From the IMG/VR virus record IMGVR_UViG_3300046450_000258, positions 1 through 32,182 of that record: a DNA stretch of 32,182 bases; one strand, written 5' to 3'. Shown here in pieces: positions 9,015 through 25,644 of this stretch; positions within the stretch are counted from its first letter, which is position 1, and every line of letters starts with the position of its first letter. The stretch is from a virus. The position numbers were made by a program, and so were the translations under genes. The notes beneath the pieces are model-generated. The model was not told the DNA's origin. It worked only from the letters and a program-made list of their open reading frames with translations, and did no database searches.

Positions 9015-9311
9015 TTATAAGTTTAATTCCAGTTTCGCAGCTTCCGACATCATATCTTGATTCCAAATTGGTTCAAATACTAAATCAAGATCAACTTTTT
9101 CAATACCTTCGACTTGCATAGCAATATCTTTAACCTCTTGTGGTAAGCTTTCAGCAACGGGACAATTTGGGGAAGTTAGTGTCATAACAATTTTTACAGT
9201 ATTCTCTACAACTTTAACCTCATAAATTAAACCTAATTCATAAATATTAACCGGTATCTCCGGATCATAAATTTTACTAATTTCAGTTATTACTTGTTCT
9301 CTTAAATCCAT
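9015..9311 (-). CDS. SufT/MIP18-family Fe-S cluster assembly factor
   Basis: A 98-residue DUF59 (MIP18/SufT/PaaD-type) protein. These factors help deliver iron-sulfur clusters to apo-proteins. The signature DPEIPVNIYELGLIY occupies residues 16-30, followed by a strand-rich core (VKIVMTLTSPNCP). The family's conserved cysteine is Cys50 in SPNCP, so a functional protein is expected. The length matches single-domain bacterial members, and the DPEIPVNIYELGLIY block is typical of alphaproteobacterial SufT, suggesting host acquisition. It lies directly downstream of a [2Fe-2S] ferredoxin (seven-base gap) and upstream of gp43. No other suf or isc gene is present, so it would act with host machinery. 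Confidence 0.88.
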   Translation of the reverse strand: MDLREQVITEISKIYDPEIPVNIYELGLIYEVKVVENTVKIVMTLTSPNCPVAESLPQEVKDIAMQVEGIEKVDLDLVFEPIWNQDMMSEAAKLELNL

Positions 9312-9318
9312 AATTTAC

Positions 9319-9657
9319 TTATAGTTTATGGTTATCTAAAAGATGGACAACCATTCCATCATGTTTTTTTTCTAGTGAAATTTGACAAGCTAATCTACTT
9401 CGCATTCTATCATAATTTTTTTCATATGTAATTAATTCAGTTTCTGCAGAATTTAAATCCATACCACCTACTATATTTGTCCATTGTTGATCTATCAAAA
9501 CATGACAAGTAGCACAGGCACAACAACCACCACAATCGGCAGGTATCTCATCAATGGCTTTATTAGAGAAATCTCTAGCGGCTTCCATCAACGTCATGCC
9601 TTCGTTTACTTGGACAGGAATAACTTCCTGACCTCTCATAAAGTTAACAGTTATCAC
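9319..9657 (-). CDS. [2Fe-2S] ferredoxin
   Basis: A 112-residue adrenodoxin/ferredoxin-type electron carrier. The cluster ligands follow the C-x5-C-x2-C-xn-C pattern: Cys42, Cys48, Cys51 (DCGGCCACATCHVLI) and Cys91 (RLACQI). Two additional cysteines (45, 46) inside the loop are unusual. The MRSRLACQI segment is typical of the ISC/adrenodoxin class. The start codon is GTG, overlapping the preceding TAG by one base (TAGTG), so translation is coupled to the Sm-like gene. Possible partners are host cluster assembly or a phage or host oxygenase; no reductase is encoded here. The adjacent SufT gene suggests a small Fe-S module. Confidence 0.92.
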   Translation of the reverse strand: MITVNFMRGQEVIPVQVNEGMTLMEAARDFSNKAIDEIPADCGGCCACATCHVLIDQQWTNIVGGMDLNSAETELITYEKNYDRMRSRLACQISLEKKHDGMVVHLLDNHKL

Positions 9658-9974
9658 TACAGTTTTGGTATTGAGTTTTCTGTAATTAGTCCTGGTGTTG
9701 TTTTGATAATTCTACTTGTATTTGACTCATATGATTTTACAAGATCATCTTTTGGTTCTGTAGTAAAAACAATTTTATCTTTACTTATTGTGATAGTATC
9801 TTTTTTACCAAAAGCATTATACAATGACATCATCAATTGTATAGGTTTTCCTGGTGCTGATTGTTGGGGTATGATAACAAATGGTTTGTGTAAACTTACA
9901 CCATCGTCATTTTCTCCTACTTTAGCGATTACATCTTCGCCAGTAGATAGTCTTAATAGTTTCACATCTTGCAT
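9657..9974 (-). CDS. Sm-like (LSm-fold) phage protein 1
   Basis: A 105-residue conserved marine-phage protein. It is clearly paralogous to the 142-residue product at 25216-25644: both share a (V/I)KLLxLxxGEDVI-type N-terminus, a central KPF element, TISKDKI or TIPKDKI, and a (V/I)KSY segment. From memory, a structural genomics group solved a related Sm-like protein of putative cyanophage origin, so I infer a five-stranded Sm/Hfq-like fold and possible RNA binding; this is not proven here. It has its own perfect promoter and a strong Shine-Dalgarno (AAGGAG before AATATTATG). It is first in a unit with ferredoxin and SufT, and probably gp43. Confidence 0.7.
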   Translation of the reverse strand: MQDVKLLRLSTGEDVIAKVGENDDGVSLHKPFVIIPQQSAPGKPIQLMMSLYNAFGKKDTITISKDKIVFTTEPKDDLVKSYESNTSRIIKTTPGLITENSIPKL

Positions 9975-10027: not shown

Positions 10028-11548
10028 TTATTCTTTCTCAAAGCCAACTTTGTCTTCTTTTCCTTCTTTGTCAACCGGTCTTAATCTCTTACTTAACGCA
10101 AATGTTCTATTAGGGTTGACACTAACATTCATAAGTCGCATTAAATCTCTATTAATTAATAGGTCCGAGCCTGATCTTGGTCTTGCATCTAACCCTACTT
10201 CTATATCTTTATATGTAAATCCATTAAACGAAATGTCTATTAATATCGTTGGTCTTTTTTCTGATGGCTCTTCACCGTCAGCATTTGCTCTAAAAACTTT
10301 ACTAGTTCCATGTCTAGGTTTAGAATATGTTTTACCATTGTATTCCCATTTAATAATTTTACCTTCTTCTAAAATTTTATCAGCATGTAACGCACAAGCC
10401 TTTGAACCATTACCCGAATCAAATTTTGCTCGTACTTTTCCCACATCAGTTAGATCAACAGTTTCTAACCAACCACATTCACTTGAAGCTTGTCTATCCC
10501 AATGACTTCTTTTAGAAACCCAATCTATGATATTGTACATTAGATTTTCACCATTAATTGATCCTGATGGTTTAGGATCAGCATAATAATCAATATATTG
10601 ATAACCTTCGTATTCAGCTCCAGATCCTGGACTACCATTGATTTCTAATATATAAGGTTTTCCTTTATATACAATATGGTCAACTCCCACAAGATAAGCC
10701 TTTGAAGCTCTACTTGCTTTTAAAATAATTTCTTGTTCTTCTTCGCTTAATTTGTATGGTTTTGGTACAGCGCCTCTATGCGTATTTGATCTGAACTCAT
10801 CTTCTGCATGTACTCTATTTGTTGAGGCAAAAATTTTATTATCCACTACAAGTGTTCTAACATCACCATCTGCTGGCATGTATTCTTGTAGTAATAATTC
10901 AGCGTCATGCTTCCATAATGCTTGAATAGTTGATGTTAGAGAATCTAAACTACCAATTTTAATAACACCAATACCTTGTGTACCCGTTAATGTTTTTAAT
11001 ATAATAGGAAATTTACCACCAACAAGTTTAAGAGCATCTTCTATATTTTTTTCGTTAGAAACAAATGCTGTTCTAGGTGTAGGTATACCAAACTTTTCAA
11101 ACAATAAAGCTGATGTCAATTTATTATCACAGGTCAACATAGCTGATCTTGTGTTTAACATAAATGCTTGTGAATTTTGAAATGCTGATATTAACGATAG
11201 TCCTGCCTCATCTTCAACGGAACCCGCTCGTGTAATACAAACTGTATCTTTACCTACAAAGGTGTGTTCGGAATCTCTACCATCATAATTATAAACAGTT
11301 AAAGTATTTTTTTCTTCGTCTTTACCTGTGATGATTGCATGTTTTGTATTAATGATAATACATTTAAAGCCTTTTTTTTGACAAGCTTTTTCGATTAGTC
11401 CTACCGTTAGTTCTTTTTTTGAAGCACTACCGGATTTTTGTTTTTTAACTTTAGGACTAGCTTTCGTAAGGATAACAACCGTAATAGGTTTATCTTTACG
11501 CTCTTTGTTTTGTTCTGTTATATATTCTCTAAACTTTGGAACTTGCAT
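10028..11548 (-). CDS. RimK-type ATP-grasp ligase fused to a RimB-like aspartic protease
   Basis: A 506-residue two-domain protein. Residues about 20-345 are a RimK-like ATP-grasp enzyme: LTCDNKLTSALLFEKFGIPTPRT (138-160 region), ATP-binding ILKTLTGTQGIGV (183-195), QEYMPADGDVR (221-231) and metal-binding LEINGSPG (301-308). RimK adds glutamates to the C-terminus of ribosomal protein S6. Residues about 360-485 match the RimK-associated retropepsin-like protease (RimB, DUF785): AKFDSGNGSKACALHADK with the catalytic Asp377-Ser-Gly, then GLDARPRSGSDLLINRDLM (452-470), the family's second conserved block. In bacteria these are usually separate genes, one building and one trimming the tail. The ATG directly abuts the RegA stop (TAAATG). 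The gene sits inside the replisome cluster, and bS21 and deformylase elsewhere in the window support a translation-targeting role. The substrate is inferred. Confidence 0.88.
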   Translation of the reverse strand: MQVPKFREYITEQNKERKDKPITVVILTKASPKVKKQKSGSASKKELTVGLIEKACQKKGFKCIIINTKHAIITGKDEEKNTLTVYNYDGRDSEHTFVGKDTVCITRAGSVEDEAGLSLISAFQNSQAFMLNTRSAMLTCDNKLTSALLFEKFGIPTPRTAFVSNEKNIEDALKLVGGKFPIILKTLTGTQGIGVIKIGSLDSLTSTIQALWKHDAELLLQEYMPADGDVRTLVVDNKIFASTNRVHAEDEFRSNTHRGAVPKPYKLSEEEQEIILKASRASKAYLVGVDHIVYKGKPYILEINGSPGSGAEYEGYQYIDYYADPKPSGSINGENLMYNIIDWVSKRSHWDRQASSECGWLETVDLTDVGKVRAKFDSGNGSKACALHADKILEEGKIIKWEYNGKTYSKPRHGTSKVFRANADGEEPSEKRPTILIDISFNGFTYKDIEVGLDARPRSGSDLLINRDLMRLMNVSVNPNRTFALSKRLRPVDKEGKEDKVGFEKE

Positions 11549-11995
11549 TTAACTCTCATCACTACTTTCAGTTTTTGGTTCAATCTTTTTTCCAATATTG
11601 TATTTTGCTGATAAAATCCATTCCTTTTTTTCTTTAAAAGGTAACACTTTGATTTGACTTAATGGTGCTTTATTTTCTAGGACTGTTTGGTTTTTGTCAA
11701 CAATTTCAATCAACTTCCAATCTTGTAAAAGAATTGATATTGTATTTCTTCTTTGAATATCATTTTCTGACAAGGTTGCATTCTTACCATCTAACGCAAA
11801 TAACTCTTTGAAATGTGTTATGAAATATTTACCTTGCTTGTGTAATATATGACAAGATTGATATAATGTTTTATCTTTTCTACTAGCGACACCAATACGT
11901 GTCAATGTTTCTCTAATTTTTAGGAAGTCGTCAGGCTGTTTGATTGTAACTTCAAGCATACTATCAGGCGTCCAATGTACAATATTTTCACTCAT
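11549..11995 (-). CDS. regA: RegA translational repressor
   Basis: RegA represses translation of early phage mRNAs by binding near start codons. Residues about 14-145 align well with T4 RegA (122 residues): VTIKQPDDFLKIRETLTRIG, KDKTLYQSCHILHKQGKYFITHFKEL, RRNTISILLQDWKLIEIV and EKKEWILSAKYNIGK. The protein is 148 residues because of an extra N-terminal segment (MSENIVHWTPDSM) and a polar C-terminal tail. It overlaps gp62 by four bases (ATGA), the same neighbourhood as in T4 (44-62-regA-43). The many U-rich, Shine-Dalgarno-poor start regions in this window are candidate targets. Confidence 0.95.
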   Translation of the reverse strand: MSENIVHWTPDSMLEVTIKQPDDFLKIRETLTRIGVASRKDKTLYQSCHILHKQGKYFITHFKELFALDGKNATLSENDIQRRNTISILLQDWKLIEIVDKNQTVLENKAPLSQIKVLPFKEKKEWILSAKYNIGKKIEPKTESSDES

Positions 11996-21182: not shown

Positions 21183-21749
21183 TTATGTTTTTTTAATGAT
21201 TCTCGCATTTTTATCTTTTTTCATTATATTCATCATCTTTTCAGCTTTATCATAAGCTCGTTTTAACTTAAATTTAGATACGTTATCTGTAAAGTTTAAT
21301 CCAGTTGTGTGGTCGTGTTCGTGTTGAAATATACGACTAAACATTCCATCTAAATGAGCTTCTTGTAATTTTCCATTCTCGTCTTCATATTTAACTACTA
21401 CTTTTCTAGGTCTTTTTATAGATAAGAATACAAAGGGAAACGTTAAACAACCCTCTTTCATTAGTTCAGTTTCTTTACTACTTGATATAATCATAGGATT
21501 AAAACAAGCCATCTTTAAACCACTTTCTAATTGTGGGTGATCTCCTAGCACAAACATATTGAAAGGTAACCCAACTTGATTACAAGTTAAACCGATGCCT
21601 CCATATTTTTTCATAGTTGTAAACATTGAATCCGCTAGTTCTTTTCTATCTTTAAATCCTTCATCTTTTAACATATCATCATTAAAAGGAGCGATAGCTG
21701 ATTGTACTCTTGGATCGGTAGGTGGTATTAATTTTAATTCTTTAGACAT
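21183..21749 (-). CDS. def: Peptide deformylase
   Basis: A 188-residue Fe/Zn enzyme that removes the N-formyl group from nascent proteins. The three family motifs are intact: GIGLTCNQ (51-58, motif 1, with Thr for the usual Ala), EGCLTFP (99-105, motif 2, metal ligand Cys101) and QHEHDH (142-147, motif 3 HExxH with metal ligands His143 and His147). I start at the ATG at 21749, which overlaps the gp46 stop by eight bases; an upstream in-frame TTG would add 11 residues. A basic C-terminal tail follows motif 3. Deformylases are common in marine T4-like phages and are thought to boost processing of phage or photosystem proteins. Here it joins bS21 and the RimK fusion in a translation theme. Confidence 0.95.
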   Translation of the reverse strand: MSKELKLIPPTDPRVQSAIAPFNDDMLKDEGFKDRKELADSMFTTMKKYGGIGLTCNQVGLPFNMFVLGDHPQLESGLKMACFNPMIISSSKETELMKEGCLTFPFVFLSIKRPRKVVVKYEDENGKLQEAHLDGMFSRIFQHEHDHTTGLNFTDNVSKFKLKRAYDKAEKMMNIMKKDKNARIIKKT

Positions 21750-23457
21750 ATTGTAACTTCGTAAAGTTGTGTTCCTTTTCAAATTTAATTATGTTAGTAA
21801 ATTTATCAAATAATATATCTCCTTTGTGTGATATAATAAAGATGTTTTCAGTATCCATCTGTCTTACTATCTTAAAGAAGTCATCTGTTCCTTGACCATC
21901 TAAACTACTATCAAAAATTTCATCAAGGACCATTAGGTTTGTATTAGCACTATTCTTCATTTTAGCAATGGCACGCCAAGTAAACACTAGTGCCAAATCT
22001 ATTCTCATTTTCTCACCCTCACTAAAACTATTATATTCAAATATATCTCTATAACGGCTCTTTACTGTTTCATTAAACTCCTCGTCTAAATTGAAGTTTA
22101 TAAAGAAGTCCATAGATTGTAGATATTGATTTATAAGAGTATTCATAATAGGTAGATACTTTTTGATTATCTTTGCCTTAGCACCTTTATCTGAAAGTAT
22201 TTCTCTTACAACATCTATGTATTTCTTTTCTTCTACTATCTTCTCTAATTCAATCTTTATTTTTTGTAATTCAGTTTTAAGTTGTATTATATGTTCTTCA
22301 ACAGTGGTACTATCATCTTCTTTTCCTTCAAGTAACAATATTTCATTATGTAAACTATCACTAAACTTTTTCAATTCATCAATAGAGGTATTGAGTTTTG
22401 ACATTTCAATGTTAGTTTCATACATCTTTTCTGATATTTTATTAAAGTCTTGTAATTGACCTTCTACTTTTGATATCTCTTTTAGTAAATCCTTCATACC
22501 ATCATTCAAAGTTACAATTTTGGCTTTCTCATATGTTTGTTTTTCACTCCTAAATTCAGTTTGTATCTTTTGAGTACAAGTAGGACAGTTATCGTTTTCT
22601 TTAAAAAAATTTAAATTGGCTTCATGTGTTACTAGATTTTGTTCTATTTTAGTTTCTAGTTTTTCTAATTGTTTTAGTTTACTTTCAAACTTATTTTTAT
22701 CTTTAATAGTTTCTTCTAATTTTATATAATCTGTATCTAATCTTTGTATCTTTCTTAAATATTGTTCTTTGGCATCAGTATTTTTTTCTAGTTTTTGCTT
22801 CTTAATATCCATATCGCCAAGACTTCTATTCTTTAAGTTCTCAAAATGTTTTGTTTCTAATTCATATTTTGATTCAATTAGATCACATTGATGTCTAGCT
22901 TCATTAATTTTTTTTGATAAAGCAGTTTGTTGATTCCTAGTCAATATATCCATATGAGATAAAACTCTTATATCTAAAATCTCCTCAACAACTTCTCGTC
23001 TATGTCTTGGTCTCATTTGCATAAACGGTTGGTATGATGATGAACCTAATACAGCTATTTGTTTAAATGCTCGGTAGTTTAATCTTAATATTTGATCTTC
23101 TAAAACATTTTGATAGTCTATACTTGAAGCGTCTTGATTCAATAATACACCATCACTATAAATTTCAAATATACTAGGTTTAATACCTCTTACAACTTTA
23201 AATGATTTTGTACCAATTTGAAAATCTATCTCAGCACGAGTATCTCCATTGTTAATTGTATTTACTATTTGTTCTTTTTTGATTTGTCTGAATGGTCTAT
23301 TGAATAGTGCAAAACAAATAGCGTCTAATAGTGTTGATTTACCAGAACCATTAGCTCCAATCAACAAGGTCATTTGAGCTTTAGTTAAATCAATCTCAAC
23401 AAAGGTATTACCTGTTGACAAAAAGTTTTTCCATTTAATTTTTTTAAATATAATCAC
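21742..23457 (-). CDS. 46: Recombination nuclease subunit gp46 (Rad50/SbcC-like)
   Basis: A 571-residue SMC-type ATPase that pairs with gp47 to resect DNA ends for UvsX-dependent recombination and to degrade host DNA. Walker A is LLIGANGSGKSTLLDAI (32-48), and Q-loop AVLGSSSYQPFMQMR follows. A long coiled coil (about 180-420) is interrupted by the zinc hook NCPTCTQ near residue 290. The ABC signature is FSEGEKMRIDLAL and Walker B is LMVLDEIFDSSLD. The length is close to T4 gp46 (560). The ATG overlaps the gp47 stop by four bases, and the stop overlaps the deformylase start. Confidence 0.97.
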   Translation of the reverse strand: MIIFKKIKWKNFLSTGNTFVEIDLTKAQMTLLIGANGSGKSTLLDAICFALFNRPFRQIKKEQIVNTINNGDTRAEIDFQIGTKSFKVVRGIKPSIFEIYSDGVLLNQDASSIDYQNVLEDQILRLNYRAFKQIAVLGSSSYQPFMQMRPRHRREVVEEILDIRVLSHMDILTRNQQTALSKKINEARHQCDLIESKYELETKHFENLKNRSLGDMDIKKQKLEKNTDAKEQYLRKIQRLDTDYIKLEETIKDKNKFESKLKQLEKLETKIEQNLVTHEANLNFFKENDNCPTCTQKIQTEFRSEKQTYEKAKIVTLNDGMKDLLKEISKVEGQLQDFNKISEKMYETNIEMSKLNTSIDELKKFSDSLHNEILLLEGKEDDSTTVEEHIIQLKTELQKIKIELEKIVEEKKYIDVVREILSDKGAKAKIIKKYLPIMNTLINQYLQSMDFFINFNLDEEFNETVKSRYRDIFEYNSFSEGEKMRIDLALVFTWRAIAKMKNSANTNLMVLDEIFDSSLDGQGTDDFFKIVRQMDTENIFIISHKGDILFDKFTNIIKFEKEHNFTKLQYV

Positions 23458-25215: not shown

Positions 25216-25644
25216 CTAGTGAACAGTTCCGTTATCATCATAATCTTCATTAAATATTTCATTCAGTTCTTCATTTTCATCATCAGTTAATCGTCTTCTC
25301 TTATATTGTTTAGTTTTAGGAATTTCTTTATTCGTTGAGTAGTCTTTAGCTACGTGGAAGTAGCTTTTAATCATTTCAACACCAGCGTTAGTGATAGTTA
25401 ATATCTTATCTTTAGGGATAGTAATAAGTTCATCTGGCGTATAGGCAGCCCACTTTATAAGTGCTACATAATCTTTGATACCTACCGGAGTTAACTGTGG
25501 TATATATTTTAATTGAAACGGTTTTTCTAATCTTAACAATTTAGAATTCTCACCTAATTGTAACTTAGGTAATACACAAACCACATCATCACCATTAATA
25601 AGTTTAACTATCTTTATAGGACTGTCTAATTGTTTTTCTATCAT
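25216..25644 (-). CDS. Sm-like (LSm-fold) phage protein 2
   Basis: A 142-residue paralogue of the 105-residue product at 9657-9974. Shared landmarks are PIKIVKLINGDDVVCVL, EKPFQLKYI, ELITIPKDKIL and VEMIKSYF. The C-terminal 45 residues are extra: a basic patch (KTKQYKRRRL) and a very acidic end (DDENEELNEIFNEDYDD). I infer an Sm-like RNA-binding fold by family, not by experiment. The junction with UvsW carries GATAAATA five bases before the ATG and no Shine-Dalgarno. That 19-base junction is identical to the one before the tail-tube-like gene. A plus-strand promoter-like element lies just past its 3' end. Confidence 0.72.
   Translation of the reverse strand: MIEKQLDSPIKIVKLINGDDVVCVLPKLQLGENSKLLRLEKPFQLKYIPQLTPVGIKDYVALIKWAAYTPDELITIPKDKILTITNAGVEMIKSYFHVAKDYSTNKEIPKTKQYKRRRLTDDENEELNEIFNEDYDDNGTVH

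What the first reader, a model, noticed from the sequence alone, without database searches (positions are those of the whole stretch)
10028..11548. RimK ATP-grasp ligase fused to its RimB-type protease in a phage replisome cluster
One protein appears to hold both the S6 glutamate ligase and the retropepsin-like protease that trims such tails, with the catalytic DSG intact at 377-379. In bacteria the two are normally separate proteins. Placed between RegA and an Sm-like protein, it could reprogramme host ribosomes by changing S6 tail length.
Basis: partly seen in the sequence, partly recalled or inferred. Interest (0 to 1): 0.72.

Follow-up and report, generated by a model that had tools for sequence, protein, structure and literature searches.

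The report
Phage RimK–RimB fusion beside RegA
Marine T4-like phages carry one protein that looks able both to add and to trim chains of glutamate, as host enzymes do on a ribosomal protein; the fused gene was reported in 2008, but what it acts on during infection is still untested as far as I could find.

Summary
The minus-strand ORF 10028-11548 (506 aa) has a RimK ATP-grasp half and a C-terminal retropepsin-like RimB (PF05618/DUF785) half, D377-S378-G379 intact, directly between regA and a 3BY7-like gene. Ligase and protease active-site residues, including three Lys/Arg positions that grip polyglutamate in related RloA proteases, are kept in essentially all relatives examined. The arrangement is not new: Monier et al. 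2008 reported it in marine phage contigs. Fusion is not peculiar to phages: bacterial RimBK hybrids are published, in opposite domain order. The likeliest biochemistry is a polyglutamate writer joined to its eraser; host ribosomal protein S6 as target is plausible but untested, and the one bacterial hybrid assayed was not seen to glutamylate S6. Added here: the slot holds two discrete versions about 30% identical while adjacent RegA stays at 72-81%; the cassette is absent from HTVC008M and Melnitz has a RimK without protease; the homologue in Yersinia phage YerA41 was listed among particle-associated proteins by mass spectrometry. Verdict: real, already described, functionally open; moderate interest.

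The parts
10028..11548 (-). RimK-RimB fusion protein ('RimKB'), 506 aa; ATG directly follows the regA stop codon
10622..11128 (-). RimK-like ATP-grasp ligase domain, residues 141-309; K143, K185, R231, R245, N255, D290, E302, N304 identical in 160 of 160 aligned phage proteins (R107, N-terminal of this domain, too)
   Evidence: PF08443; Foldseek best hits are RimK structures; conservation
10085..10480 (-). RimB / retropepsin-like protease domain (PF05618, DUF785), residues 357-488
10418..10426 (-). K375 (polyglutamate contact, RloA K46 equivalent), F376, D377 (catalytic Asp, RloA D48 / RimB D31 equivalent)
10253..10255 (-). R432, equivalent of RloA R114 (polyglutamate contact)
10181..10183 (-). 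R456, equivalent of RloA R137 (polyglutamate contact)
11549..11995 (-). RegA translational repressor, directly upstream
   Evidence: PF01818 4.8e-45; adjacency 148 of 148
9657..9974 (-).
   Evidence: adjacency 141 of 141
9319..9657 (-). 2Fe-2S ferredoxin, part of the same cassette

Best explanation
The gene makes a single polypeptide that builds and trims alpha-linked polyglutamate tails: the RimK half ligates glutamate with ATP onto a protein C-terminus, and the RimB half, working as a dimer as retropepsins do, cuts long glutamate runs and so sets tail length. The most likely target is ribosomal protein S6 of the infected host, altered from the RegA-linked (early or middle) operon onward so as to tilt host translation towards phage mRNA. 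Shown here: domain identities, fold, intact catalytic and polyglutamate-contact residues, purifying selection on both halves, fixed position after regA. Inferred: enzymatic activity, dimerisation, the S6 target, timing in this phage and the effect on translation.
For: RimK fold and family (5ZK6, RimK with RpsF, is the top Foldseek hit). RimK residues reported to hold the glutamate chain in P. aeruginosa RimK, R64, R189 and N262, correspond to R107, R231 and N304, present in 160 of 160. The protease half has the fold and the catalytic Asp in 159 of 159. RloA residues modelled and tested for polyglutamate cleavage (K46, R114, R137) correspond to K375 (158 of 159), R432 (159 of 159) and R456 (159 of 159). 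Median pairwise dN/dS 0.11-0.14 for both halves in both lineages. RegA directly upstream in 148 of 148 loci with sequence there. In bacteria RimB trims RimK-made S6 tails. The YerA41 homologue is middle-expressed.
Against: The only hybrid assayed (Desulfotalea RimBK) was not seen to glutamylate RpsF. RimK-family ligases also serve small-molecule and carrier-protein pathways; the window protein scores far below the S6-ligase equivalog model (109 versus 331 bits) and just below the RimK-family model (140.2 versus 143.4). R8 of RimK, a glutamate-chain contact, is not kept (K, D or K in the window, Mosig and GN1 proteins). Mosig-type and GN1 proteins have Gln where bacterial and window-type RimK have Arg in the SNxHRG loop. 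The window domain itself fails PF05618. No host S6 could be inspected.
Confidence: 0.45

Rival explanations
1. Same chemistry, other target: the enzyme glutamylates and trims another host or phage protein, or makes free poly-alpha-glutamate that drains or stores glutamate; S6 is not the physiological substrate.
For: Bacterial RimBK cut polyglutamylated RpsF but was not seen to glutamylate it, and RimB stimulates free polyglutamate synthesis by RimK. The published discussion notes alternative RimK targets.
Against: No substrate candidate appears in the cassette: of 36 window proteins listed none has a run of four glutamates, and of 92 distinct RegA proteins only 13 end in Glu.
Confidence: 0.3
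2. The protease half is mainly a built-in regulator of the ligase rather than an eraser of substrate tails.
For: RimB raises RimK ATPase in P. fluorescens and P. syringae and lowers it in P. aeruginosa. Methylophilales phage Melnitz has the ligase without the protease half.
Against: Catalytic Asp and polyglutamate contacts are kept in essentially all sequences, which pure allostery would not require.
Confidence: 0.12
3. The protein rides in the virion and acts at once after injection.
For: The YerA41 homologue g112 ('ribosomal protein modification protein') is asterisked as an LC-MS/MS-identified phage-particle-associated protein (Table 3), and the deposited record calls it a structural protein.
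Against: 63 proteins including many replication enzymes were found in that preparation, so carry-over is possible; no proteome of a Mosig-type or window-type phage was seen; the gene sits in a replication block, not with structural genes.
Confidence: 0.08
4. A glutathione-synthetase-like or other small-molecule ligase, as Mosig's protein is annotated ('putative glutathione synthetase').
For: ATP-grasp kinship: PF02955 E 2.1e-15; annotation.
Against: RimK models and RimK structures score far better; fusion to a polyglutamate-protease-type domain fits protein tails.
Confidence: 0.05

Closest known systems
Phage RimK with C-terminal DUF785 in GOS marine contigs (Monier, Claverie and Ogata 2008, PMC2530865)
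   Same: RimK ATP-grasp with PF05618 on its C-terminal side, beside regA, with a 3BY7-like gene nearby on T4-like contigs
   Different: In 2008 the extra domain had no known function; its reading as RimB, the residue tests and the two versions at the slot are added here
Bacterial RimBK hybrid (Desulfotalea psychrophila DP2392; Little et al. 2025, PMC11957791)
   Same: Same two domain families in one protein
   Different: Opposite order (RimB N-terminal); cellular gene; protease activity shown, S6 ligation not seen
Pseudomonas RimK + RimB (separate proteins)
   Same: Same ligase and protease families, shown to act on S6
   Different: Two genes, partly with RimA and c-di-GMP control; not in a phage
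RloA secreted retropepsins (9G58, 9G59)
   Same: Closest solved structures besides 2PMA; same polyglutamate-contact positions
   Different: Periplasmic, not fused to a ligase
T7 kinase phosphorylating S6 (as cited in PMC2530865)
   Same: A phage modifying the same ribosomal protein
   Different: Different chemistry

Membership tests
RimK family alpha-L-glutamate ligases | RimK ATP-grasp domain | tested here: met
   PF08443 125.8 bits, cutoff 21; Foldseek's first 22 hits are all RimK
RimK family alpha-L-glutamate ligases | Glutamate-site residues R64, R189, N262 | tested here: met
   Equivalents in 160 of 160; the R8 equivalent is not kept
RimK family alpha-L-glutamate ligases | NCBIfam RimK family model TIGR00768 cutoff | tested here: not met
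   140.2 bits against 143.4
RimK sensu stricto (S6--L-glutamate ligase) | NF007764 equivalog cutoff | tested here: not met
   109 bits against 331
RimK sensu stricto (S6--L-glutamate ligase) | Adds glutamate to S6 | not testable with these tools
   needs enzyme assay or mass spectrometry
RimB / PF05618 retropepsin-like proteases | PF05618 match above cutoff | tested here: inconclusive
   Window domain: none; Mosig and GN1 homologues above cutoff; 29 of 45 at E<=1
RimB / PF05618 retropepsin-like proteases | Retropepsin fold | tested here: met
   Z 12.3 to 2PMA, 11.6 and 11.3 to RloA2 and RloA, 8.8 to XMRV protease
RimB / PF05618 retropepsin-like proteases | Catalytic D[ST]G | tested here: met
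   159 of 159 fused proteins
RimB / PF05618 retropepsin-like proteases | Lys/Arg that grip polyglutamate (RloA K46, R114, R137) | tested here: met
   158, 159 and 159 of 159; RloA roles from PMC12239564 section 8
RimB / PF05618 retropepsin-like proteases | Homodimer and polyglutamate cleavage | not testable with these tools
   needs protein work
Bacterial RimBK hybrid | RimB domain N-terminal to RimK | tested here: not met
   Phage order is RimK then RimB
Marine phage RimK-DUF785 of Monier 2008 | RimK with C-terminal DUF785, beside regA, 3BY7-like gene nearby, T4-like contig | tested here: met

The most novel reading that the evidence does not exclude
Marine T4-like phages carry a self-contained ribosome-tail editor, writer and eraser in one chain, held at one genomic slot in two discrete, mutually exclusive versions, one of which replaced the other while the neighbouring genes stayed in place, as expected if each version is matched to a different host tail or counters a host control of S6 glutamylation; in some phages it enters with the virion.
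Probability: 0.2. Interest if true: 0.72.

Novelty: already known. Interest (0 to 1): 0.42.

Why it matters
If S6 is the target, this would be a phage enzyme that both adds and trims a ribosomal protein tail, giving a clean way to ask what S6 polyglutamylation does to translation. A carrier of a related fusion has been cultured (Mosig on Pelagibacter ubique HTCC1062), and S6 glutamylation and trimming assays exist for Pseudomonas and E. coli proteins, so the 2008 suggestion can be tested directly.

Tried and rejected
Host S6 tail: sought and not reached. The single genome-contig scan returned 3 loci (an archaeon, a Clostridia bacterium, a Phycisphaerales bacterium; RimK region only), and the genome search did not accept a plasmid locus as centre, so no Pelagibacter genome could be opened. 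That scan used exact short patterns, so it does not show that cellular genomes lack the RimK-RimB order (Monier et al. cite haloarchaea with it).

Autoglutamylation: the last residue of the complete fused proteins varies (E, K, D, M), so there is no conserved C-terminal Glu. RegA as substrate: 13 of 92 distinct RegA proteins end in Glu. Encoded polyglutamate in the window: none of 36 proteins listed has EEEE; one has EDEDD. Amino-acid carrier (LysW-like) as substrate: a LysW note stands on a YerA41 gene eight genes downstream; the part of it in view shows no glutamate tail, its end is not in view; not pursued.

Structured RNA in the window: no Rfam match at gathering score. tRNA or tmRNA: none. 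PF05618 by HMM in six viral records: none, because the window-type domain is too divergent for that model; profile and fold comparison resolved it. Four plasmid regions with bacterial RimK were opened out of 70 plasmid records with a match; they served for the residue alignment only, not for architecture counts.

Full-length AlphaFold model: pLDDT 69 only, used for the ligase half; the protease half was modelled apart. Recent swapping of the two versions among close relatives: version changes once on a gp43 tree (100 typed tips) and three times on a regA tree (149 typed tips), so frequent exchange is not indicated. A profile-profile comparison of the phage domain with one Vibrio RimB gave E 1.2e-4 but probability only 54%.

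Four truncated loci (L004, L008, L014, L018) were dropped before alignment; the 160 aligned proteins are the window's, 76 of L001-080, 80 of L089-168, Mosig, GN1 and Melnitz (the last has no protease half).

Full report
What is there. The window is a 32,182-base virus record, GC 31%, with a T4-like gene set: gp43, gp44, gp45, gp62, RegA, UvsX, UvsW, UvsY, gp55, gp46/47, major head protein, scaffold and head protease. The nearest isolate by DNA polymerase is Pelagibacter phage Mosig (67.9%), then cyanophages at about 53%; the window's own host is not known. The finding is one minus-strand ORF, 10028-11548, 506 aa. Its ATG follows the regA stop codon with no gap.

Ligase half. Residues 141-309 match PF08443 (2e-36), and RimK structures match best by sequence (7QYR 1.1e-28) and by fold (5ZK6, RimK with RpsF, TM 0.81 by target). 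In P. aeruginosa RimK the bound glutamate chain touches S7, R8, S14, R64, S68, R189 and N262 (passages of PMC10092738). R64, R189 and N262 map to R107, R231 and N304 through the HMMER alignment, and all three are present in 160 of 160 phage proteins, as are K143, K185, D290 and E302. R8 is not kept. The protein misses the S6-ligase equivalog cutoff by far and the RimK-family cutoff by three bits, so 'RimK-type ligase' is safe and 'S6 ligase' is not.

Protease half. The window's own domain escapes Pfam. The evidence is from relatives and fold: profile hits to three solved PF05618 proteins and nothing else at E<=10 (a larger alignment adds one unrelated hit at 0.1), PF05618 above cutoff in the Mosig and GN1 proteins, and a model with Z 12.3 to 2PMA and 11.3-11.6 to the RloA proteases against 8.8 for the best retroviral protease. 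In a single-sequence search the window domain alone ranks 2PMA first, at E 0.0062. The catalytic Asp and Gly are in 159 of 159 fused proteins. In RloA, K46, R92, R114 and R137 contact polyglutamate in a model, and alanine changes at R114 and R137 hurt cleavage most (section 8 of PMC12239564). Counting from the catalytic Asp on the 9G58 sequence as printed and using the alignment, K46, R114 and R137 fall on K375, R432 and R456, kept in 158, 159 and 159 of 159. R92 is an alanine in RimB itself according to that paper and was not scored here.

Both halves are under purifying selection: median pairwise dN/dS for the ligase and protease halves is 0.114 and 0.139 in window-type loci and 0.135 and 0.126 in Mosig-type loci (pairs are not independent, and saturated pairs were left out as listed there).

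Place. Of 160 IMG/VR loci (80, 80), RegA is directly upstream in 148 of 148 with enough sequence and the 3BY7-like gene directly downstream in 141 of 141. HTVC008M, a Pelagibacter phage relative, has only one 67-aa ORF between regA and gp43. Melnitz has a RimK without the protease half, one small ORF before the polymerase. In cyanophage S-RIM8 a RimK of 292 aa without the protease half lies near the terminase instead. In the phage collection the protease half is found only in Mosig and the two Yersinia phages GN1 and YerA41 when searched with the Mosig and GN1 domains, and the search with the whole window protein covers it only there.

Two versions at one slot. Window and Mosig fusions are 32% identical, against 77% for RegA, 84% for gp44, 68% for gp43 and 64% for the 3BY7-like protein. 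To sample without using the fusion, loci were fetched by the 3BY7-like gene: 153 loci, 146 after removing seven contigs fetched twice, 20 of them with under 700 bases upstream; the remaining 126 of 126 carry a fusion, 87 window-type and 39 Mosig-type. Each of the 132 scored before that removal is at least 67.7% identical to its own version's reference and nothing lies in between, while RegA of the Mosig-type loci is 72.5-80.6% identical to the window's, inside the window-type range of 69.8-99.3%. Version follows phylogeny with few changes. The simplest reading is one old replacement of the gene in place; fast divergence followed by constraint is not excluded. These loci are limited to the 80 best hits per scan, so rarer versions may exist.

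What is already in print. Monier, Claverie and Ogata 2008 (PMC2530865; section 11 read in full, other passages by search) describe a phage rimK beside regA, more than a hundred related marine contigs, DUF785 on the C-terminal side in several, N-terminal in bacteria such as Synechococcus, C-terminal in Halobacteria, a 3BY7-like gene, and the suggestion that it acts in a process similar to T7's phosphorylation of S6. Little et al. 2025 (PMC11957791; abstract and sections 5, 6, 12, 13, 14 read) show RimB to be a retropepsin-like polyglutamate protease, name the RimBK hybrid, find it in 12% of rim-bearing accessions, and report that D. psychrophila RimBK cuts polyglutamylated RpsF but was not seen to glutamylate it; the word phage occurs twice there. 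I found no paper that reads the phage fusion as writer plus eraser; the searches were made, in open-licence PubMed Central only.

Expression and virion. YerA41's g112, 'ribosomal protein modification protein', is listed as middle-expressed and asterisked as particle-associated by LC-MS/MS (Table 3 of PMC7354516; proteomics section read). I match it to the fusion by position (two genes after the ribonucleotide reductase alpha gene in both the table and the record) and by its deposited label 'structural protein'; the GN1 and YerA41 proteins are identical. The paper's supplementary table was not open to me. Sixty-three proteins were found in that preparation, many of them enzymes.

Judgement. That the protein is a RimK-type ligase fused to a RimB-type protease I hold at about 0.95; that both halves act on polyglutamate, about 0.75; that host S6 is the main target, about 0.45. 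Related phages also encode ribosomal protein S21 (passages of PMC9004378 and PMC6375957), so a broader habit of altering the small subunit is credible but circumstantial. Because the arrangement itself was described in 2008, I file it as already known and score the interest for what remains testable.

Noticed in passing
10028-11548 and L081:5001-6386: Two discrete versions of the fusion (about 30% identical) occupy one syntenic slot while the adjacent RegA stays at 72-81% identity; no intermediates among 126 loci sampled through the neighbouring 3BY7-like gene.
   Followed up: partly
9015-9657: A 2Fe-2S ferredoxin and a SUF-associated (SufT-like) Fe-S assembly protein lie between the 3BY7-like gene and gp43; the ferredoxin is fast-evolving (46% to Mosig) and the SufT-like gene was seen in only 3 of 80 window-type loci, not all of which reach that far.
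   Followed up: no
25216-25644: A second protein related to phrog_431/phrog_527, the family of the 3BY7-like neighbour.
   Followed up: no
21183-21782: Phage peptide deformylase, another gene acting on nascent protein ends.
   Followed up: no
L173:6554-6928: YerA41 carries a gene annotated as a mono-ADP-ribosylating toxin four genes downstream of its fusion homologue.
   Followed up: no
L174:5419-5622: HTVC008M has a 67-aa ORF of unknown function in place of the whole cassette.
   Followed up: no
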